From: Novipirellula herctigrandis
GTDB lineage: Bacteria > Planctomycetota > Planctomycetia > Pirellulales > Pirellulaceae
Assembly (NCBI GenBank): GCA_007859835.1
Contig: SJPJ01000002.1
Span: 142,744 to 206,743, forward strand
DNA: 64,000 nt
Direction: 5' to 3'
Under the pieces are notes generated by a model. That model was not told where the DNA came from and did no database searches. It worked only from the letters and a program-made list of their open reading frames with translations. The position numbers were made by a program, and so were the translations under genes. Below, piece by piece: positions 7,969 to 35,222 of the stretch. How positions within the stretch are numbered: position 1 is the first letter of the stretch; every line of letters starts with the position of its first letter.

Positions 7969-10329
7969 CTAAAACGACTCGTGTTCGGTTCTCGCGATAA
8001 TTTCGTCCTGTAACGCTTTCGACAAATCGCAAAAATAATCACTGTAACCAGCCACACGTACAATCAAATCGCGATGCGACTCGGGGTTGGCTTGTGCTTT
8101 GCGAAGCAACTCAACATCCACCACGTTAAACTGGACGTGGTGGCTATCCATTTTGAAATAGCTGCGAATCAAATGGGTCATGTGCTCGATGCCTTGATCG
8201 CCTTTTAACAAATCCGGCGAGAACTTCATATTCAGCAGCGTCCCACCCGTTTTGACATGATCCATCTTTGCCGCGGATTTAAAAACCGCAGTAGGCCCGA
8301 TCCGATCGGCACCTTGCACCGGAGAAATCCCTTCCGATAGAGGCATCCCAGCTCGGCGGCCATCCGGACTTGCGCCCGTGACCGCGCCAAAGTAAACGTG
8401 ACAGGTCGTCGGCAACATATCAATGTGATACTCGCCACCACGACTGTTTGGCCGACCATCGATAGATTGGAAAAACGCGTCAAAACAACGCACCATGATT
8501 CGATCGACTTCGTCGCAGTCATTGCCATACTTGGGCGTTTTGTTCAGTAGCGTTTGACGAAGCTTCTCACCGCCATCAAAATCCCGTGACAATTGCGCGA
8601 GTAACTCGTCCATGCTGACCGTTTGGTTTTGATAAACATGCATATCAATCGCCGCGAAACAGTCGCTTAGGCTGCCAATACCAACACCTTGGATATAGCT
8701 CGTGTTATAGCGAGCACCGCCGGCGTTATAATCTTTTCCTTTTCGTATACAGTCATCGGTAATGACCGATAGAAACGGAGCCGGCGCATTTCGTGCGTAC
8801 ATCTGCTCGAAAATGTAGTTGCCTTTTAGTTTAAGCTCGGCAAAGTGATCGACTTGTTGTTGCCAAGCCGAGAACAGTTCGTCAAAGGTGGTAAATGATC
8901 GCGGATCACCAGTGGTGGGTCCAAGCTGCTTTTTTGTCCGCGGGTCAAAACCGTTGTGAAGCGTTAATTCTAGAATTTTCACCAGGTTAAAGTAGCCGGT
9001 TAAAACGTAAGCCTCTTTACCGAATGCTCCCGATTCGACGCAACCGCTTGTTCCACCCTCCCTGGCATCCTCAACACTTTTGCCTTGTCGCAGCAATTGC
9101 TCGACCACGCCGTCGGCGTTAAATACCGAAGGAAATCCGTAGCCTTTGCGGATTACTTTCGCTGCTGCTTTGACAAACCGATCGGGATTTTTTCGCGACA
9201 ACTGGATATTGTTGCTCGGTTGCAAGACATGCATCTCGTCAATCACTTCCAGCAACAAGTAGGAAACATCATTGACGGCATCGCTGCCATCCCGACGTAT
9301 TCCGCCAAGATTGATGTTTGCAAAGTCGGTGTAGGTCCCGCTTTCGGCTGCCGTCACGCCCACTTTGGGCGGCGCAGGGTGGTTATTAAATTTGACCCAC
9401 CAACACTCCAAAAGCTCTTTTGCGGAATCACGATCGAGTGTTCCGCTGGCGAGTTCGCGCTGGTAAAACGGCCAAAGGTGGTGATCCAAATGCCCTGGAT
9501 TAAAGGAATCCCATCCATTGAGTTCCGTGATTACCCCAAGGTGATAAAACCAATAAGCTTGCAGAGCTTCATAGAAATTACGCGGTGCATTTTCAGGAAC
9601 GTGATCACAGACCGTCGCGATTCGTTCCAATTCGGCTTTTCGCGTTGGGTCGGTCGATTGTTCCGCCAATTCGCGAGCCAAGACGGCGTGACGCTTTGCA
9701 AATAGAATTGCTGCATCGGCTGCGATTGTCATGGCCGTCAACTGCTCACGTTTTTCAAACGCCTCCGTATCGTTCAAATAGTCAAGACACGACAAGGACT
9801 CGGAAATTTCTCGTTGGAAGTCGACAAGTCCTTTGGTGTAAAGTTTTCCATCCGCAACCGTATGCCCCGGAGCTCGTTGCTCCATAAATTCGGTAAAAAC
9901 GCCCGCCTCATAAGCATCATGCCACGAATCAGGCAATAGCGGGAAGACACGATCACGGATCGACCGGCCTCGCCAATACGGAATCACTTCATCGCGGTAA
10001 GCATTGATCGCTTCCGGGGGAACACCGTAGCTTGTCTTTTCACGCGAGTTGAGAATTTGCAGATCTTCGATGCTATGGCAAGTAAGTTCGGGAAATGTCG
10101 GTGTCACCGATGGCTGCGGTCCACGCTCGCCAACAATCAATTCCTCCTCGCCAATGTAGATGGTCTTGTGCTCACACAAGTATCGGAAAGCCATCGCTCG
10201 CAAGACCGGAACGGAATGCTTCCCCTCATTGGCCCGATAGAATTGAGTCAATAACTGAGCCCGCTCGGCACTGATACGGGGTCTCGCTTGGACACTCTGC
10301 TCTCTTAGTCGCCGCACGCGTTCATTCAT
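7969..10329 (-). CDS. hypD: Glycyl radical enzyme, probable trans-4-hydroxy-L-proline dehydratase
   Basis: 786 aa. The glycyl radical loop is RVAGYSDYF with Gly761 near the C-terminus; the thiyl cysteine is Cys430 in GTSGCVESGAFGKEAY, giving the CxE pair (Cys430, Glu432) of radical dehydratases/lyases rather than pyruvate formate-lyase's CC. Residues I recall as lining the HypD active site (His160, Asp278, Ser334, Phe340, Cys434, Glu436, Tyr450, Thr645) are all present at a constant offset of -4: His156, Asp274, Ser330, Phe336, Cys430, Glu432, Tyr446, Thr641. HypD removes water from trans-4-hydroxyproline to give 1-pyrroline-5-carboxylate, which ProC reduces to proline. The gene overlaps its activase by 8 bases, so the two are co-translated. 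The enzyme is oxygen-sensitive, implying anoxic use. The substrate assignment is inference from residues; propanediol or choline lyase is less likely. Confidence 0.82.
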   Translation of the reverse strand: MNERVRRLREQSVQARPRISAERAQLLTQFYRANEGKHSVPVLRAMAFRYLCEHKTIYIGEEELIVGERGPQPSVTPTFPELTCHSIEDLQILNSREKTSYGVPPEAINAYRDEVIPYWRGRSIRDRVFPLLPDSWHDAYEAGVFTEFMEQRAPGHTVADGKLYTKGLVDFQREISESLSCLDYLNDTEAFEKREQLTAMTIAADAAILFAKRHAVLARELAEQSTDPTRKAELERIATVCDHVPENAPRNFYEALQAYWFYHLGVITELNGWDSFNPGHLDHHLWPFYQRELASGTLDRDSAKELLECWWVKFNNHPAPPKVGVTAAESGTYTDFANINLGGIRRDGSDAVNDVSYLLLEVIDEMHVLQPSNNIQLSRKNPDRFVKAAAKVIRKGYGFPSVFNADGVVEQLLRQGKSVEDAREGGTSGCVESGAFGKEAYVLTGYFNLVKILELTLHNGFDPRTKKQLGPTTGDPRSFTTFDELFSAWQQQVDHFAELKLKGNYIFEQMYARNAPAPFLSVITDDCIRKGKDYNAGGARYNTSYIQGVGIGSLSDCFAAIDMHVYQNQTVSMDELLAQLSRDFDGGEKLRQTLLNKTPKYGNDCDEVDRIMVRCFDAFFQSIDGRPNSRGGEYHIDMLPTTCHVYFGAVTGASPDGRRAGMPLSEGISPVQGADRIGPTAVFKSAAKMDHVKTGGTLLNMKFSPDLLKGDQGIEHMTHLIRSYFKMDSHHVQFNVVDVELLRKAQANPESHRDLIVRVAGYSDYFCDLSKALQDEIIARTEHESF

Positions 10330-11269
10330 CGCCGTTACCGTCTATCACTTTCAAATTTCGAGCGAGGAACGGTTCGGCCGCCCGCACGATTTGTTCTTTG
10401 CTCGGTGGATCAAGATCCTTCAATCGGTACCCCTCTTTAAAGTGTCGATGTTTATCGCTTCCGATCCGATGATAAGGCAACAAGTAGACGGGATAGGATG
10501 GGCGGTCAAGCGAGGCGACGAAATCCGCCGTGGCTTCCATATTGGCTTGGTCGTCGTTGATACCTGGAATCAACGGCACCCGAATCCAAATGTTCGCATC
10601 GAGATCGGAGAGTACTCGCAGGTTGTCCAAAATGGTTTGGTTGCTGACGCCAACATACTTTCGATGCCTCTCGTCATCCAACAATTTCAGATCGTACAAG
10701 AACAAATCCGTTAGCGGTGCGACTGCCTGAATCGTTTGCGACGTTGTGAATCCGGCCGTATCGACGGCGCGATGGTATCCTCGCTCACCACATGCTTGAA
10801 GGCACGAAATCAAAAATGCGGCATTTTGTCGCGACCCAAGTGGATCGCCACCCGAGAACGTTACTCCGCCACCTGATTCGTCGTAGAAGACCTGATCTTT
10901 GTCAATCTCTCGCATCAATGCATCGACGTCGTAAGCGTTGCCAACGATCGTTCGAGCGTCCGTTGGACACTGATCCGCACACGTTCCACAAAGAGTGCAT
11001 TTCAATGGATCGGCAAGCCCGGCGGGGTTCCAATCGAGTGGTTCGGCAACGTCTTCGGGACAGACCTTCAAACAGGTTTCGCAGCCGATACACCGATCGG
11101 CGAACATAAAAATCGCAGCTTTTCGATCGCGACTTTCAGGATTATGGCACCACCAACAATCGAGCGGGCACCCCTTCATAAAAATGGTCGTACGGATTCC
11201 GGGCCCATCGTGGATGGAATAGCGTTGAATATTGAACACGATCGCCGAAGCGACGTTGGCGTTATTCAT
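10322..11269 (-). CDS. hypE: Radical-SAM glycyl-radical activating enzyme (HypE-like)
   Basis: 315 aa. Installs the glycyl radical on the partner enzyme using S-adenosylmethionine and a 4Fe-4S cluster. Seen: the radical-SAM CxxxCxxC motif at Cys34/Cys38/Cys41 (KGCPLDCWWCHNPE) after the DGPGIRTT signature; two extra ferredoxin-type clusters with ligands Cys60/63/66/70 and Cys91/94/97/101, which mark the dehydratase/lyase activases and separate them from the short PflA; the GGG..SGGDP block follows (GGGVTFSGGDPL). The ATG at 11269 gives MNNANVAS with no leader, so it is cytoplasmic. It is translated just ahead of the glycyl enzyme and overlaps it, which supports a dedicated pair. Confidence 0.88.
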   Translation of the reverse strand: MNNANVASAIVFNIQRYSIHDGPGIRTTIFMKGCPLDCWWCHNPESRDRKAAIFMFADRCIGCETCLKVCPEDVAEPLDWNPAGLADPLKCTLCGTCADQCPTDARTIVGNAYDVDALMREIDKDQVFYDESGGGVTFSGGDPLGSRQNAAFLISCLQACGERGYHRAVDTAGFTTSQTIQAVAPLTDLFLYDLKLLDDERHRKYVGVSNQTILDNLRVLSDLDANIWIRVPLIPGINDDQANMEATADFVASLDRPSYPVYLLPYHRIGSDKHRHFKEGYRLKDLDPPSKEQIVRAAEPFLARNLKVIDGNGDE

Positions 11270-11327
11270 GGAATGATAAGAATCCTAAGACCGTATTTGA
11301 TAATACAATCTTAGCGAAAAATTCACC

Positions 11328-23947: not shown

Positions 23948-26900
23948 TCATTCACGGCCGTCTGCGTCGTTTTTCCCGGACTTGCTGGGTCCATCTTCGT
24001 CCGAACAGGCGGGCAGTGCATTCACAAAACTCTCTTTGCCGAGCATATCGATGCGCGGATTCTGTTTCAGTCGTTCGCTTCCAACATGAATCGCTTTTAG
24101 GCTTTTCTGATAGTCGGGATCCGCCTTGTCAGCAAACACGGGCGATCCGTCCTGGTTCTTACAAAGACCGGCACCGCCGGATGCTTCCGATAGCGGGGCT
24201 TGCAACAACAAACTGTGCGACGGATGGGTCAGGTTGATTCGGAACTCGGGGCCCAACTTGTTAACTAAACCCCATTTGACCCCGAATCCATGAGAGGTCA
24301 ACGCTTTGTCACCCCACACATCGCTATAAACCTTCATGCGTTTGGGAATCAACCATGATTGGTTCAACGCATCGCGTTCATGACAGTCGGCACAGCGCCG
24401 ATCAAACACTTCTTGCAGGTCACCGGTTGCCCAGGTTGTGTTTGGATTTTCGGTTTCCCAGGCATCTCGCATTCCTAAGCCGCGTGGCCGGTCGTCGACC
24501 AGATTGGAATCATAGGTCGCATAGTAGGGGACGTTGGCGTCGATCCAACAATACACGCGAAAACGATCCGACCAACTGACCTCGGAACCGCAATGTTCTT
24601 TGGACAAATACTGGTCGATTTTGCTAACTTTTGCACCGACTGTGTTGGGAGTTCCCTCATCGTGATCGAGCGAAAATACCGAAAGGTGATCAACGATATC
24701 ACGATCAACCAGATGCTCGTAGGATTGGCTAAAGAAACGTGTCTTGTCATCCGTCATGTCAACACTCGCGTCTGGCAATGAACCGCTGTGGCATTCCACA
24801 CAGTGTTTATCCCAAACCGGCTGAACCACGGTCAGATAATCGATCAAGCCCTGTGTACCCCAGTCCTGTTTTTCAGGAGTCACCGGTGCCTTCTTAAGCG
24901 CCATAGGCAGTCCCTGCATCGGTGGAGCCGCACCGAAACCATGCTCACGCTGCTCATGGCATCCAATACAGCTAATGCTTTCACCTGGCATCACATGAAT
25001 GTCTGCTCCCATTCGCATCAGCGTTTTGCCTTCTCCGTCGAGCACATTGAGCGAAACGCTTCGCATCGCTGGAACCTTGAAACTCGCCGACCCATCGTCT
25101 TCAATTGGAACCAGTCCAACGAGTCGTCGGGCGTGCACGGTGCCACGACCGATAATCGGCGAATGCCCCCAAGCCTCGCCGCCTTGAAGAATGCGACTCT
25201 TCTGCACTTGCTCTATCACGGAAATGAATTTCGCTTCGCCCCGTTTTACATAACGGGAAATGCCTTGGTAGACATCCTGAACCATCATCGTTGCTGTTTG
25301 ATCCGCTCCCGCATCAGAGCGATTCATACTCTCGGGATCTTCGTAGGTCCAATTCAATGGCGAGATTTTATCAGGATATACGGGCGGCTTTTTCTTGGCC
25401 TCGACCGGCATCGCGTTGTAAACCGAAAGCCCATTTGGCGATTCATAGATCACCTTTTCGTTTCCATACGCGTCCAACAAAAGCAGCTTCAGCGGCGCCA
25501 TGGTCGATTCCGGTCGTCGGACCCATTTCTTCGTGGTGTTCGGTAGCGTCCATTCTGGTCGCTGCTTGAATCCTCCATACGAAACCAGGAACTGTTTTTC
25601 GTTCAGCGGATACGGAGTACGGTAACCATCGGGATACATTCGGTCGCCATAAACAGGAAACTCACGCGTGATCCAGCGGTAACCGGTACCTCGCGGTGAT
25701 TCCGGACCTTTGCCATCCCAAAGCAAACCGATCATCCCGGCATGATGATTGTGATGCGGACCAAAAACCGCCAAGATCTCTGGGCGATCCGGGATCGGAT
25801 GCGCCCACCAAAAGCCACCTGGATCTTCGATCGTGTTACCGAAAACAAGTTGAAACCCGGTCCCGTCGGGATTGACGGTCCAAAGCGCGTGTCGCGCAAA
25901 CACGTTTTTCTCGATGCCATAATCCCAACGAGTGAACATGATGCGTCCATCATTGGTCACGCGAGGCGAATGGTCACTATCGATGTTGGCTGAGATCAAC
26001 CGCACGTCCGATCCATTTCGGTTCATCGTAAACAGTAGCCCTGCGTACTGTGTCTGACATCCGACGAAGCTCTGTTTGCGCGTTGAGATAAACGCGATAC
26101 GACCATTTGGTAGTTCCACCGGGCTAATGTCAGCGGTATCGCCAGTCGTGATTTGTTTGAACCCGTTACCATCAATGCCGATTTCATAGATATTCCACGC
26201 ATAATCCATTGCCTCATTCTTCGCGGAGAAGAAAATGGTTTCCCCATCAAAGGAAAGGCTCATGTCATAGATGCGCATCTTTGGATCCGAGTAAATCACC
26301 GTTGGCTCAGCATCAGGTTTCGATGGATCGAGCAAACAAATTGCCGAAGGCAATGACCCCTTGGTTCGATAAGGAGCAATCGCATTTTGATCGTGCAGCG
26401 GCTTGGTAATGAACACGAGTGGCGGCAACGCTTTCACTTCGGTTTCCAACGCTGCCTTCACTTTGTCAGCCTGAGCCTTGACGTTCGCTGGTGTTCCTTC
26501 TGCCAAAACTTGACGGGTGGCTCGCTCCAACGCTACCAGCGTTCGGTCATACGCAGCCGCAGTCGGAGTTGCTGAATATGATGCCAACGATTCTTCAATT
26601 TCAAATCGCTCAGGCGAATACATCGGAATCGGTTCAGCCTTGAATTTGAATCGGTTTAGATACTGCTCGGGCGTCAATTTCTCGACGGTATGAATATCGA
26701 CATAGAACGGATCGGTGACATCGTGCATACCGTCGATGGCAAACGCAAATCCGTGTTCTGCCCAACGACTCACGTTTTTAACAAGCAATTGATTGATTCC
26801 CTTTTTCAAGGCAACCTTGTGGCGCATTGGACCTTGGTATCGACTTTGGCCCGTTAGCTTGTTGTGCCGGAAGACGGCTTCACCATTGATCCAAACCTTG

Positions 26901-27295
26901 AAAAAATCCTGCACGCGAAAATACATCGAAACCGTTTGATCGCAGTCAGACTCAATCGTGCGATACAAATAGACCGCTTCCATACGCGACGGTGCTGGGC
27001 CGCGAGGCAGAAGATTGTAGAAGCCATCTGCATAGTCTTGTCGAACTTTCCATCTCCGTTCCAAGTCAAGGTAACCCGGGAACTCCTTCATCAAGTAAGT
27101 TCTGGAGATGTCAATGTCGTTAGCGAGGGCATCCTTTTCGACCTCAAATTCATAGGCCAATGTTCGATCGAGGTTTCCGAACTCTTCGTCTTTGAACGGG
27201 CCAATGACGTGCCAATCACCCAGTTCAAGCTCGGCTGCATACGATGTTCCGAACATCGACAGCAAAACAAATCCAACGATCCACTGCATTTTCAT
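23948..27295 (-). CDS. Secreted triheme protein with hydrazine synthase alpha-like / PD40 propeller region
   Basis: 1115 aa with a signal peptide (about 1-20). N-terminal part (20-190) is a jelly-roll-like domain (VYLYRTIESDCDQTVSMYF). The middle (about 310-620) is a beta-propeller with PD40/TolB-like blades (RIYDMSLSFDGETIFFSA, ADISPVELPNGRIAFIST, DHSPRVTNDGRIMFTRWDYG). The C-terminal third has three c-type heme sites: Cys776-x-x-Cys779-His780 (CIGCH), Cys832 (CVECH), Cys968 (CADCH). This layout is what NCBI names 'HZS alpha domain' proteins in non-anammox Planctomycetes. True hydrazine synthase needs beta and gamma subunits, which are not here, so hydrazine formation is not claimed. Probable role: periplasmic electron transfer or oxidation of an unknown substrate. 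Stands alone. Confidence 0.8.
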   Translation of the reverse strand: MKMQWIVGFVLLSMFGTSYAAELELGDWHVIGPFKDEEFGNLDRTLAYEFEVEKDALANDIDISRTYLMKEFPGYLDLERRWKVRQDYADGFYNLLPRGPAPSRMEAVYLYRTIESDCDQTVSMYFRVQDFFKVWINGEAVFRHNKLTGQSRYQGPMRHKVALKKGINQLLVKNVSRWAEHGFAFAIDGMHDVTDPFYVDIHTVEKLTPEQYLNRFKFKAEPIPMYSPERFEIEESLASYSATPTAAAYDRTLVALERATRQVLAEGTPANVKAQADKVKAALETEVKALPPLVFITKPLHDQNAIAPYRTKGSLPSAICLLDPSKPDAEPTVIYSDPKMRIYDMSLSFDGETIFFSAKNEAMDYAWNIYEIGIDGNGFKQITTGDTADISPVELPNGRIAFISTRKQSFVGCQTQYAGLLFTMNRNGSDVRLISANIDSDHSPRVTNDGRIMFTRWDYGIEKNVFARHALWTVNPDGTGFQLVFGNTIEDPGGFWWAHPIPDRPEILAVFGPHHNHHAGMIGLLWDGKGPESPRGTGYRWITREFPVYGDRMYPDGYRTPYPLNEKQFLVSYGGFKQRPEWTLPNTTKKWVRRPESTMAPLKLLLLDAYGNEKVIYESPNGLSVYNAMPVEAKKKPPVYPDKISPLNWTYEDPESMNRSDAGADQTATMMVQDVYQGISRYVKRGEAKFISVIEQVQKSRILQGGEAWGHSPIIGRGTVHARRLVGLVPIEDDGSASFKVPAMRSVSLNVLDGEGKTLMRMGADIHVMPGESISCIGCHEQREHGFGAAPPMQGLPMALKKAPVTPEKQDWGTQGLIDYLTVVQPVWDKHCVECHSGSLPDASVDMTDDKTRFFSQSYEHLVDRDIVDHLSVFSLDHDEGTPNTVGAKVSKIDQYLSKEHCGSEVSWSDRFRVYCWIDANVPYYATYDSNLVDDRPRGLGMRDAWETENPNTTWATGDLQEVFDRRCADCHERDALNQSWLIPKRMKVYSDVWGDKALTSHGFGVKWGLVNKLGPEFRINLTHPSHSLLLQAPLSEASGGAGLCKNQDGSPVFADKADPDYQKSLKAIHVGSERLKQNPRIDMLGKESFVNALPACSDEDGPSKSGKNDADGRE

Positions 27296-27821: not shown

Positions 27822-29671
27822 ACTAGTCCTCAATCAAGCGACTGCTAAGTCGCGAATATTTTATAAAACTCGAAAACCCTTGGCGTTTTACGCGTCTATT
27901 GGAGGTTACTAAGACTTCAATCCACGCACGCTACAAGGGGTTTCGAGTGAACATCAGGGTACGTCAACAACTGCGAAAACGCAAACGGAGATTATTACGC
28001 AGAATTTCAGTCCAGCATGGAGCGTGGAAATCGCCCATGATTCGTCCTTCCACCACGAAACTCGAACTCGCCGAGAAACAGCAGGCGGTCTCCTGCGGCG
28101 GTATCGCAGTGATCCTCGAACTGATCAAGAAGCTTGGTCTGCGGAAGGAACTCAATCGTTCGGCAAAGGTATTCAAGCTCCACCTGCCCTACGACGAAAC
28201 TGACCACATTCTCAACATTGCCCTGAACCTGCTCGCCGGTGGAACGTGCTTGGATCACATCGAACAACGACGCAACGACGAAGCCTATCTCGATGCACTC
28301 GGTGCGGAGCGCATACCCGACCCGACTACTGCTGGAGATTTCTGCCGGAGATTCAGTCACCTCAAGCTGCTCATGGTCATGCAGGCAGTCAATCGCGTTC
28401 GGCAAACCGTTTGGAAGCAGCAAGAGGACAGCTTTCTCGATTGCGCCACGATCGAAGCAGACGGAACGATGGTGGAAACAAGCGGTGAAAAGAAATCCGG
28501 CATCGGCATCAACTACAAAGGCCAATGGGGCTACCATCCGCTGGTCGTCACGCTCGCGGAAACTCAGGAGCTGCTTTACCTGCACAATCGTAGCGGCAAT
28601 CGTACCAGCGAGGAAGACTCCGCATTTTTCTATGACTTGGCGATCCAACAATGCACACAGGCGGGCTTTCGAAAGATCGTTCTTCGTGGCGATACGGCCT
28701 TCTCGTCGACGGAGCACTTGGATCGCTGGGACAACTCAGGTGTGAAGTTCATTCTTGGCTATTCCGCTCATCGGAACCTCTGCCGCATCGCTGATTCGCT
28801 TGCAAAAACCGCATGGAAACGGCTTGACCGTTCGAGGCGAAGCACGCCGGACAAGGCAGAGCGTGCCTGCCGTCCGAACGAGAGAGAACGAATCGTCCAG
28901 ACCAATGGCTACAAGAATCAACGACTTACCGGAGAGAGTTACGCTGAATTCGAGTATTGTCCCACCGCATGCGAGAAGACTTATCGAATGATCGTTGTTC
29001 GCAAAGACATTGATGTAACCAGTGGGCAACAGCTACTGTTCTCCGAAGAGCGATACTTCTTTTATATCACCAATGAAACAGCAGGAACTTTGCCAGCGAG
29101 GGAAGTGATTCGCGGCAGCAACCAGCGTTGCGACCAAGAAAACACGATCAGCCAATTGAAAGCCTGTGGAGCCTTGACCGCTCCGCTGGATAACCTTGAA
29201 AGCAACATGGCGTACATGCTGTTCGCCTCCTTGGCTTGGACGTTGAAGATTTGGAGCGGGTTGCTGGTTCAAGTCAAGGGCAACGAAAGTCAGAAACGTG
29301 TTCGCCGGGAAGCTCGCAACCGAATTATTCGGATGGAATTCTGGACGTATTTGAATTCGCTGATCCTTCTTCCCGCTCAAATCATCCGTTCGTCACGGCA
29401 GCGCGTCTTCCGGTTGTTAACCTATCGCCCTACGGTGGACCTACTGATGACCCTACACGATCACATCCGCAAGCCACTGCGATGTTGACGACTCAGCACC
29501 AACGAAGCCGAGGTCTGGACGTCTCGGTACCGCTCAAACGCCTAACTCAAAGAACACGAGCCATGCGAAGATCAAGATCGAAAATCAAAAAGCCTGGCCA
29601 CCGGTCTGCTCGCATCGCACAAGCGAAAAACCCGAAAACGTCACGCGTGGATCGCTTGATTGAGGACTAGT
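27822..29671 (+). mobile_element. IS1380-family insertion sequence (first copy)
   Basis: Ends are CCTCAATCAAGCGA (27828-27841) and its reverse complement TCGCTTGATTGAGG (29652-29665), each flanked outside by ACTAGT (27822-27827 and 29666-29671). Because ACTAGT is its own reverse complement, it can be either a 6-bp target duplication or an extension of a 20-bp terminal repeat. IS1380 elements normally begin with CC, which favours a 1838-bp element at 27828-29665. It holds one transposase gene. Inserted beside a sulfatase remnant. Confidence 0.85.
27947..29488 (+). CDS. IS1380-family DDE transposase
   Basis: 513 aa if started at the GTG at 27947; a TTG at 27899 and an ATG at 28037 (483 aa) are alternatives. 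The basic N-terminal segment (RVRQQLRKRKRRLLRR) is typical of planctomycete members and argues against the ATG at 28037. RNase H-like transposase: first catalytic Asp in TIEADGTMVE, second in IVLRGDTAFSSTEHLD, then a Glu-containing helix with RGSNQRCDQENTISQLK. It cuts and pastes its own element. The frame is intact, so it may be active. Confidence 0.9.
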   Translation: MNIRVRQQLRKRKRRLLRRISVQHGAWKSPMIRPSTTKLELAEKQQAVSCGGIAVILELIKKLGLRKELNRSAKVFKLHLPYDETDHILNIALNLLAGGTCLDHIEQRRNDEAYLDALGAERIPDPTTAGDFCRRFSHLKLLMVMQAVNRVRQTVWKQQEDSFLDCATIEADGTMVETSGEKKSGIGINYKGQWGYHPLVVTLAETQELLYLHNRSGNRTSEEDSAFFYDLAIQQCTQAGFRKIVLRGDTAFSSTEHLDRWDNSGVKFILGYSAHRNLCRIADSLAKTAWKRLDRSRRSTPDKAERACRPNERERIVQTNGYKNQRLTGESYAEFEYCPTACEKTYRMIVVRKDIDVTSGQQLLFSEERYFFYITNETAGTLPAREVIRGSNQRCDQENTISQLKACGALTAPLDNLESNMAYMLFASLAWTLKIWSGLLVQVKGNESQKRVRREARNRIIRMEFWTYLNSLILLPAQIIRSSRQRVFRLLTYRPTVDLLMTLHDHIRKPLRC

Positions 29672-33485: not shown

Positions 33486-35222
33486 CCCGAACATTGCATC
33501 CGCGGATTCAGCTTGCCCACTAGCGCGAAAGCCTTAGTCCTGATAGTCATTGGAGTTACCACACCTCAATTTCCACAGGCCCAAGGCTTTCTGCAATGAC
33601 AGATCGTAAACGAAAACGTCCTGCTCTGAAACGCCTACGTCGGCAAGCTGTTGATGCTGACTTCGACGGTGGAACGCTCACCTCCGATGGCGGCTTGGTG
33701 CTCCTTCGCGAAGTTGATCGGCGGCTCGATCTGATCCGAAGGGTCGATCAAGCCATCCCCGATCCGCGTGATCCGATCTACACCGCGCATCAGCAAGACG
33801 AGATCCTCATCAGCCGAATCTTCGGCATCGCCGCCGGTTACCAAGACGCCAACGATCACGACGCCTTGCGGCACGATCCCGCTTTTCAAGTGGCTGCCGG
33901 AAGGACGCCAGCAGAAAACGATTACAGCGAAGGCGCCTATCCGCTTGCCAGTCCCTCGACGCACTGCCGGTTTGAAAACCGAATCGACTCCAAGGCCATC
34001 TTCAAGCTTCACGAAGTCCTCGTCGATACCTTCCTGGATAGCTTCGACGAGCCGCCTGAAGAAATCATCCTGGACTACGACGCGACCGATGACACCGTCC
34101 ATGGCAACCAAGAGCGTCGGTTCTTCAACGGTTACTACGACAGCTACTGCTTCCTTCCGCTTTACGTTTTCTGCGGCGATCAGATTTTGGTTTCGTATCT
34201 GCGGCCCAGTAGTGTCGGAGCGGCTCATCATGCTCGGCCGGTTACCAAGTTACTGGTCCAGAAGATTCGTTCGCGTTGGCCTGACGTGAAGATCATCCTT
34301 CGCGGCGACGGCGGCTATGCAGACGAACCGCTGATGCGATGGTGCGACAAGAACGATGTCGGCTACATCTTCGGCTTACCCAAAAACAAGGTTTTGGTGC
34401 GGGAAATCGCTTGCGAAATGACTCGGGCGAGGATTCAGCAATCGTATCTCGGTGGCAAGCGAGCGTGCTTCAAATGGTTTCGCTATCGAACGTCCAGGAC
34501 TTGGGATCGTCATCGCTGGGTTGTCGGCAAGGCACAGTACACCGGCAAGGGAGCCAACCCGCGTTTCGTGGTCACCAACCTGCCCAGCGACGCGGGCATT
34601 GTTGATACGACAAGGCACCGGCCGATGGTCGACGGCAAGCGACAACCTTGGGAAGTCAAGGAAGCCGGGACACAGTGTAGCGTCGCTTGGAATCCGGAAG
34701 ACTTCTATCGCACGATGTACTGCATGCGTGGTGAGATGGAGAACCGGATCAAGGAACAGCAGTTGTGTCTGTTCGCCGACCGAACCAGTTGCACGCGATT
34801 CATGGCGAATCAATTTCGACTGATGCTCTCATCGCTGGCCTATGTGTTGGTTGATGGCCTGAGGCGACTGGCACTTTCGGGCACCGAGCATTCACGCCTG
34901 CGTGTGGACAGCATTCGCCTGCGACTGTTGAAGATTGCCGCTCGGGTCCAAGTGACTTCTCGCCGGGTGGTGTTTCATCTTTGCAGCCATTGTCCATCGG
35001 CGGCGCTATGGGACGACGTGATGCTGCGACTTTGCCGTAGCGATTAGCCTTGCCCATCGCCAGAGATAATTCGCAACCCGCGAGCCGATGGTCAACGTGG
35101 GGGAAGGGGGAACTCCGCGCCGCCAACAAAAAAGACGATCAAATCGATGCTCCAAAGTGGCCCATGCCATCCCAGCTAAACTCAAAAGCGTCTACCACAG
35201 GCGGATGCAATGTTCGGGCTAA
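33482..35222 (+). mobile_element. IS1380-family insertion sequence (second copy) with CTAA target duplication
   Basis: 1733-bp element at 33486-35218. Terminal inverted repeats are perfect over 18 bp: CCCGAACATTGCATCCGC at 33486-33503 and its complement at 35201-35218. A 4-bp direct repeat CTAA flanks it (33482-33485 and 35219-35222). It lies inside a repeat unit of the giant gene and runs opposite to it. Insertion plus duplication is 1737 bp. Its transposase and ends differ from the first IS, so the two are different IS1380 types. Confidence 0.95.
33596..35047 (+). CDS. IS1380-family DDE transposase
   Basis: 483 aa, ATG at 33596. Basic N-terminus, then LTSDGGLVLLREVDRRL, a common opening of this family. 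Catalytic Asp in EIILDYDATDDTVHG, second Asp in KIILRGDGGYADEPLMRW, and a Glu helix with MRGEMENRIKEQQLCLFADR. This matches the IS1380 groups spread in Planctomycetes and Proteobacteria. The frame is intact, so the element may still move. Only about 30% of positions look shared with the transposase at 27947 by eye. Confidence 0.93.
   Translation: MTDRKRKRPALKRLRRQAVDADFDGGTLTSDGGLVLLREVDRRLDLIRRVDQAIPDPRDPIYTAHQQDEILISRIFGIAAGYQDANDHDALRHDPAFQVAAGRTPAENDYSEGAYPLASPSTHCRFENRIDSKAIFKLHEVLVDTFLDSFDEPPEEIILDYDATDDTVHGNQERRFFNGYYDSYCFLPLYVFCGDQILVSYLRPSSVGAAHHARPVTKLLVQKIRSRWPDVKIILRGDGGYADEPLMRWCDKNDVGYIFGLPKNKVLVREIACEMTRARIQQSYLGGKRACFKWFRYRTSRTWDRHRWVVGKAQYTGKGANPRFVVTNLPSDAGIVDTTRHRPMVDGKRQPWEVKEAGTQCSVAWNPEDFYRTMYCMRGEMENRIKEQQLCLFADRTSCTRFMANQFRLMLSSLAYVLVDGLRRLALSGTEHSRLRVDSIRLRLLKIAARVQVTSRRVVFHLCSHCPSAALWDDVMLRLCRSD

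What the first reader, a model, noticed from the sequence alone, without database searches (positions are those of the whole stretch)
7969..11269. A planctomycete trans-4-hydroxyproline dehydratase system (HypD/HypE)
The glycyl radical enzyme has Gly761 and the Cys430/Glu432 pair, and every HypD active-site residue I recall (His160, Asp278, Ser334, Phe340, Cys434, Glu436, Tyr450, Thr645) occurs with a constant -4 offset. The activase overlaps it by 8 bases. HypD is known chiefly from anaerobic gut and soil bacteria; in a marine-type planctomycete it would mean anoxic use of hydroxyproline from collagen or algal cell-wall glycoproteins, alongside the sulfatases in this window.
Basis: partly seen in the sequence, partly recalled or inferred. 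Interest (0 to 1): 0.72.

Follow-up and report, generated by a model that had tools for sequence, protein, structure and literature searches.

The report
Hydroxyproline dehydratase pair in a planctomycete
A planctomycete bacterium carries a complete, ordinary-looking gene pair for an oxygen-sensitive enzyme predicted to turn hydroxyproline, an amino acid from collagen-like and plant or algal proteins, into a proline precursor, and its genome also seems to hold the oxygen-using route for the same food.

Summary
Window 7969-10329 (-) encodes a 786-aa glycyl radical enzyme and 10322-11269 (-) its radical-SAM activase, overlapping by 8 bases. The enzyme passes the curated HypD model (1277 bits, cut-off 1100), aligns without gaps to solved C. 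difficile HypD (6vxc; 54% identity), keeps 14 of 14 pocket residues taken from the crystal paper, and falls in the HypD clade. The activase scores below the HypD-activase cut-off (370 against 425), but so did 8 of 8 partner activases tested.

It is not rare: HypD relatives occur in many environmental phyla, in 13 of 392 sampled genomes of this phylum over the cut-off (own included) and in 3 of 3 held genomes of the genus. HypDs of the bacterial family do not form one clade, so repeated acquisition is likely.

More interesting: the same genome has ProC, a PutA-like protein, an oxygen-independent-type (class II) ribonucleotide reductase, and an epimerase / D-amino-acid dehydrogenase / deaminase-like cluster, which suggests separate oxic and anoxic hydroxyproline routes. 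Activity, substrate and anoxic use were not tested.

The parts
7969..10329 (-). [quoted passage not shown]
   Evidence: ORF and translation; NCBIfam NF043068 1277.3 bits over cut-off 1100; Pfam PFL-like and Gly_radical; phmmer best 6vxc; 14 of 14 pocket residues; tree; AlphaFold model's best PDB match 6vxc, TM 0.94.
10322..11269 (-). hypE: radical-SAM glycyl-radical-enzyme activase, 315 aa
   Evidence: ORF; TIGR02494 337.8 bits over cut-off 174.35, best hit NF043069 370.3 bits under its cut-off 425; CX3CX2C at residue 34 and two CxxCxxCxxxC motifs at 60 and 91; gene directly upstream of hypD in 72 of the 80 genome-contig loci.
10322..10329 (-). 8-base overlap of the end of hypE and the start of hypD (ATGAATGA)
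8047..8049 (-). codon of Gly761, the predicted glycyl radical residue
   Evidence: One search gives residue 761 in RVAGY; codon position computed from the ORF start at 10329.
9034..9042 (-). codons of Cys430-Val431-Glu432, the CXE motif
   Evidence: codon positions computed from the ORF start at 10329.

Best explanation
It is a two-gene hydroxyproline dehydratase unit. The activase (hypE) uses S-adenosylmethionine and its iron-sulfur clusters to make a radical on Gly761 of HypD. The radical passes to Cys430, which takes a hydrogen atom from C5 of trans-4-hydroxy-L-proline; water leaves from C4 with help of Glu432, Asp274, His156 and Asp335, giving pyrroline-5-carboxylate (P5C). P5C is then reduced to proline by the genome's ProC or oxidised to glutamate by its PutA-like protein. 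Shown here: the genes, the motifs, the family membership of HypD, and the presence of ProC, PutA-like protein, class II ribonucleotide reductase and a bd oxidase elsewhere in the genome. Taken from the C. difficile enzyme (PMC7077986): the chemistry. Inferred: that this protein does the same, that it works only without oxygen, and that the cell uses it during anoxic periods while an epimerase / D-amino-acid dehydrogenase / deaminase-like cluster elsewhere serves hydroxyproline when oxygen is present.
For: HypD model 1277.3 bits, cut-off 1100, the next NCBIfam model (a subfamily) 668.4 and below its cut-off. Solved structures: 6vxc 1035.9 bits, glycerol dehydratase 558.9, other hydroxyproline-type glycyl radical enzymes 488.0 (8id1), 483.1 (8iof), 429.2 (7vua) (their substrates named). 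Pocket: 14 of 14 residues; 99 of 120 aligned rows have all 14, and the 17 rows outside the HypD clade keep 3 to 6. Tree. Strong purifying selection: 81% amino-acid identity with saturated synonymous sites in both other genus members (dN 0.13 and 0.14). hypE-hypD adjacency in 72 of 80 loci. Genome: ProC and PutA-like (Pro_dh + Aldedh), class II ribonucleotide reductase, bd oxidase. Aminopeptidase P/M24 peptidase neighbours in some relatives fit peptide-bound hydroxyproline as the source.
Against: No activity was measured. The activase is under the curated HypD-activase cut-off. The AlphaFold model has pLDDT under 50 at 153-155, 324-332 and 640-662, which include pocket residues, so pocket geometry is untested, and other glycyl radical enzymes also match the model at TM about 0.9. 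No proC lies near hypD here or in any of 86 loci checked, unlike in C. difficile (PMC12899673, passages). The genome has no NrdD and this is its only PFL-like glycyl radical enzyme, so it is not an obvious anaerobe.
Confidence: 0.92

Rival explanations
1. [quoted passage not shown]
For: These act on close analogues and are homologous (429 to 488 bits).
Against: HypD scores 1036 bits, the curated HypD model is passed, and Asp278/Asp339/Ser334/Phe340 of HypD are all kept. The residues of HplG and the N-methyl enzymes were not compared one by one.
Confidence: 0.03
2. A HypD-like enzyme that has drifted to a different, unknown substrate.
For: 46% of residues differ from the only solved HypD; [quoted passage not shown]
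Against: All 14 pocket residues are unchanged here and the enzyme sits inside, not at the edge of, the HypD clade.
Confidence: 0.04
3. A horizontally acquired HypD pair that is intact but of little use to an aerobic host.
For: Patchy: 12 of 241 family genomes, own included, have HypD-like genes at 63% identity or more; family members do not form one clade; no shared flanking genes in the other two genus members; only glycyl radical enzyme of its PFL-like family in the genome.
Against: Present and intact in 3 of 3 genus genomes, with purifying selection and all catalytic residues kept.
Confidence: 0.08

Closest known systems
[quoted passage not shown] PMC7077986)
   Same: Full-length gap-free alignment, 54% identity, 14 of 14 pocket residues, Gly and Cys loops; top structural match.
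   Different: No proC beside it; in C. difficile one proC lies next to hypD (PMC12899673, passages). Host is a 9.5-Mb planctomycete, not a Stickland fermenter as far as was tested.
NCBIfam NF043069, HypD activase
   Same: Best-scoring model for the window activase (370.3 bits).
   Different: Below the curated cut-off of 425; 8 of 8 other partner activases tested are also below, so the cut-off seems tuned to a narrower set.
Aerobic hydroxyproline route (4-hydroxyproline epimerase, D-hydroxyproline dehydrogenase, deaminase)
   Same: Own genome C1 near 7681287-7684650 holds an epimerase-like protein closest to PA1268 (332 bits) with both Cys positions, a D-amino-acid dehydrogenase-like protein and a DHDPS-family protein matching 4mpq/2hmc/5czj at 430-441 bits against 70 for the next. 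That PA1268 is a hydroxyproline epimerase and 4mpq/2hmc/5czj belong to the hydroxyproline deaminase group is recalled, not from a call.
   Different: All three score under the NCBIfam cut-offs, and it is not linked to hypED in the genome.

Membership tests
[quoted passage not shown]
   NF043068 1277.3 bits, cut-off 1100.
[quoted passage not shown]
   Gly761, Cys430, Glu432.
[quoted passage not shown]
   Asp274 and Asp335; no row outside the HypD clade has both.
[quoted passage not shown]
   His156, Ser330, Phe336, Tyr446, Thr641.
[quoted passage not shown]
   102-row clade, support 100, including 6vxc; 1r8w and 16 other glycyl radical enzyme rows outside (FastTree).
[quoted passage not shown]
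   Needs an enzyme assay.
Glycyl-radical-enzyme activating protein (TIGR02494) | Score over cut-off, CX3CX2C radical-SAM motif, two extra 4Fe-4S motifs | tested here: met
   337.8 bits, cut-off 174.35; motifs at residues 34, 60 and 91.
HypD activase (NF043069) | Score over the curated cut-off | tested here: not met
   370.3 bits, cut-off 425. Not filed as a member of this model; it is called HypD activase by its place beside hypD. 8 of 8 partner activases also fail (these were read from the tblastn match start, so a few N-terminal residues are missing).
Stickland-type hypD-proC cluster | proC next to hypD | tested here: not met
   No ProC match (own ProC, E 1e-8) in 86 loci around hypD; own proC lies on another contig.

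The most novel reading that the evidence does not exclude
One planctomycete genus keeps two hydroxyproline routes: the radical HypD for anoxic hours and the flavin-dependent epimerase route for oxic hours, so that a surface-attached, otherwise respiring bacterium can live on cell-wall or collagen-like protein through day-night oxygen swings. HypD would then be an amino-acid salvage tool of aerobes with a class II ribonucleotide reductase, not only of fermenters.
Probability: 0.3. Interest if true: 0.5.

Novelty: new member of a known kind. Interest (0 to 1): 0.3.

Why it matters
It adds a well-supported HypD to a large planctomycete genome and shows the enzyme is part of a wide environmental pool, not mainly a gut trait. 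Co-occurrence with a likely oxic route in the same genome makes a testable case of paired oxic and anoxic use of one amino acid. No paper linking HypD to planctomycetes was found in the open-access library: searches gave 0 papers; some searches gave lists in which I saw none by title or abstract. Of the 2 papers I saw passages of both: the planctomycete mentions are a list of phyla and a reference title. The library lacks most subscription papers, including the HypD discovery paper.

Tried and rejected
Considered and rejected: pyruvate formate-lyase, glycerol or propanediol dehydratase, CutC, isethionate and sulfopropanediol lyases (all far below HypD). The low activase score as a sign of a mismatched partner: rejected as a specific signal because 8 of 8 partner activases score likewise. 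A shared mobile block around hypED: no window flank gene matched around hypED of G392 or G393, and the aroB regions of those genomes share only aroB with the window apart from one weak 30% HD-type match, so an empty site could not be aligned. GC content of the hypED stretch (0.49-0.52) is within the range of its surroundings (0.47-0.57), so gives no sign of recent import. Promoter and terminator scans were at chance level. A 13-pair inverted repeat before hypE looked like an operator, but nothing similar was seen by eye upstream of hypE in G393 or G392. The AlphaFold model could not test the pocket because the pocket loops have low confidence. In the family-level clade test I named the group after having seen the tree, used 37 of the 119 rows, and left out the partial HypDs of G427 and G463. 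The position of the genus's nearest relatives differs between the two trees (open fork with Krumholzibacteriia and others; Planctomycetota MAGs L002 and L004 at support 84), so the donor is unresolved. Rows dropped: of 134 loci, 5 repeats and 12 shorter than 600 residues; identical rows from different loci remained (114 different of 119).

Full report
Observation. The gene order is activase then enzyme. The enzyme has RVAGY with Gly761 and GCVES with Cys430 and Glu432. The activase has CX3CX2C at residue 34 and two CxxCxxCxxxC motifs.

Identity. [quoted passage not shown] the next model, a broad subfamily, has 668.4 and fails its cut-off. Among solved structures 6vxc (HypD of C. difficile) leads with 1035.9 bits, then glycerol dehydratase 1r8w with 558.9. 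The HypD alignment has no gaps over 781 residues; identity is 54%, against 37% to glycerol dehydratase.

Pocket. From the crystal paper (PMC7077986: outline and abstract, parts 1-4 of 11 of its main section, and found passages) I took Phe152, Arg156, His160, Trp277, Asp278, Lys326, Ser334, Asp339, Phe340, Cys434, Glu436, Tyr450, Thr645 and Gly765. All 14 are in the window protein at -4. In an alignment of 120 rows (117 loci, 6vxc, 1r8w, window), 99 have all 14; one more (L067) lacks a readable last residue; 3 differ only at Glu436; and the 17 rows outside the HypD clade keep 3 to 6. The paper reports no activity for variants changed at Cys434, Glu436, His160, Asp278, Asp339, Ser334, Phe340 and Gly765.

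Tree. With 119 rows (FastTree) the HypD clade has 102 rows at support 100, with 6vxc inside and 1r8w outside; the window protein joins the two other genus members at 100. Long branches among the non-HypD rows make their own order unsafe, as the tool warned, but this does not touch the HypD clade's inner rows.

Distribution. In a phylum sample 13 of 392 genomes pass the HypD cut-off, own included, and none of the 8 other same-family genomes of that sample has a match. All 3 held genus genomes have it. In the family, 19 of 241 genomes have some match; 12, own included, at 63% identity or more (two of these, G427 and G463, in pieces), and 7 only at under 30%. A test on 37 rows rejects one clade for the family's HypDs (log-likelihood 139.7 lower, p-AU 1.4e-50). 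Repeated acquisition, or old duplicates with loss, would explain this; donors are unresolved.

Neighbourhood. hypE lies directly upstream of hypD in 72 of 80 loci, downstream in 1, and was not found in 7, some of them at contig ends. In 86 loci a cluster of peptidase-like proteins recurs in 10 and a GntR-like cluster in 9; ProC in 0. Pfam confirms M24 peptidases in 5 of 5 tested (L009, L012, L018, L053, L076), of which 4 are next to hypED and one (L009) 6 kb away, and GntR-FCD in 2 of 2. In the window none of these is adjacent: one side has aroB, the other an SH3-domain protein. The window flanks are not shared with the two other genus members.

Activase. Best model NF043069, 370.3 bits, below its cut-off 425; the broader TIGR02494 is passed. 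The eight partner activases tested gave 326-379 bits to NF043069, all under the cut-off; it was the best model in 7 of 8.

Rest of the genome. The window lies in a 9.5-Mb genome in 23 contigs, on contig C2. It has one PFL-like protein (this one), ProC, a Pro_dh plus Aldedh protein like PutA, bd oxidase subunits, no NrdD (the control rang in 6 of 14 genomes) and a class II, B12-dependent ribonucleotide reductase. Class II enzymes do not need oxygen (recalled), so DNA precursor supply would not bar anoxic life.

A second hydroxyproline route. Two full-length proline-racemase-family genes were found. One (C1 about 7683514-7684650) has both catalytic Cys positions aligned to PA1268 and is followed by a DHDPS-family gene and an FAD D-amino-acid-dehydrogenase-like gene. 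The DHDPS-family protein matches 4mpq, 2hmc and 5czj at 430-441 bits and the next at 70. I recall that PA1268 is a 4-hydroxyproline epimerase and that this DHDPS subgroup includes the hydroxyproline deaminase; no call showed it. Scores stay below NCBIfam cut-offs, and the dehydrogenase's nearest solved relatives are glycine and sarcosine oxidases at about 80 bits, so its substrate is open. G393 has a racemase-family gene next to a similar FAD gene. Among 11 other family genomes with HypD, 4 have a full-length racemase-family gene (G392, G393, G578, G581); the rest have none or only partial 21-30-bit matches.

Model. AlphaFold2 with 24 rows gave pLDDT 82.0, pTM 0.86, but pLDDT under 50 at 153-155, 324-332 and 640-662. 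Foldseek ranks 6vxc first (TM 0.94, 53% identity), yet other glycyl radical enzymes reach about 0.9, so the fold adds little beyond sequence.

Ecology. A kelp-associated planctomycete (Crateriforma sp. HD03) raises nifH expression in the low-oxygen dark phase, though it failed to grow anaerobically (PMC12628686: abstract and found passages). This makes day-night oxygen swings a plausible setting, but that strain was not shown to be related to this genus or to have HypD.

Verdict. A sound new member of HypD; ordinary as an enzyme, moderately interesting as part of a possible two-route hydroxyproline metabolism.

Noticed in passing
L161:8428-10818 (-), L162:7948-10302 (-), L163:8277-10631 (+) (genomes G287, G311, G331): Three HypD-clade proteins of the same phylum have Cys-Val-Thr in place of Cys-Val-Glu; the other 13 pocket residues are kept and two of two tested still pass the HypD cut-off (1250 and 1184.1 bits). 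Glu436 is essential in C. difficile HypD. G311 and G331 show no activase-like ORF in the 19 kb fetched; G287 has one upstream. A possible change of function.
   Followed up: partly
L146:6288-9651 (own genome C1 about 7681287-7684650): Racemase-family, DHDPS-family and FAD D-amino-acid-dehydrogenase-like genes in a row, resembling the aerobic hydroxyproline pathway.
   Followed up: partly
L145:8990-10024 (own genome C1 about 4470989-4472023): A second racemase-family protein with Ser where the first Cys would be (GMSGHG) and Cys at the second site; function open.
   Followed up: no
L114:1504-3855 (G392): A second glycyl radical enzyme in a genus member, with ACVG instead of CXE at the Cys loop; best NCBIfam model HypD at only 458.7 bits.
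   Followed up: partly
window 11285-11314: 13-pair inverted repeat CTAAGATTGTATTATCAAATACGGTCTTAG between the SH3-domain gene and hypE; terminator or operator. One match in the window, none in shuffles, but the pattern was made from this site. Nothing alike seen upstream of hypE in two genus members.
   Followed up: partly
window 23948-27295: 1115-aa protein with a Pfam hydrazine synthase alpha middle domain match (67.2 bits), in a genome not shown to be anammox.
   Followed up: no
window 27899-29488 and 33596-35047: Two DDE transposases flanking a PQQ-repeat protein and a dockerin-domain protein.
   Followed up: no
L012:5804-6979, L018:618-1868, L053:10478-11869, L076:10428-11828: M24 (aminopeptidase P / prolidase-type) peptidase genes next to hypED in relatives, fitting use of peptide-bound hydroxyproline.
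   Followed up: partly
L138:7730-10354 (G581, same as L026): This HypD has an extra stretch of about 30 residues near residue 563 of the window protein.
   Followed up: no
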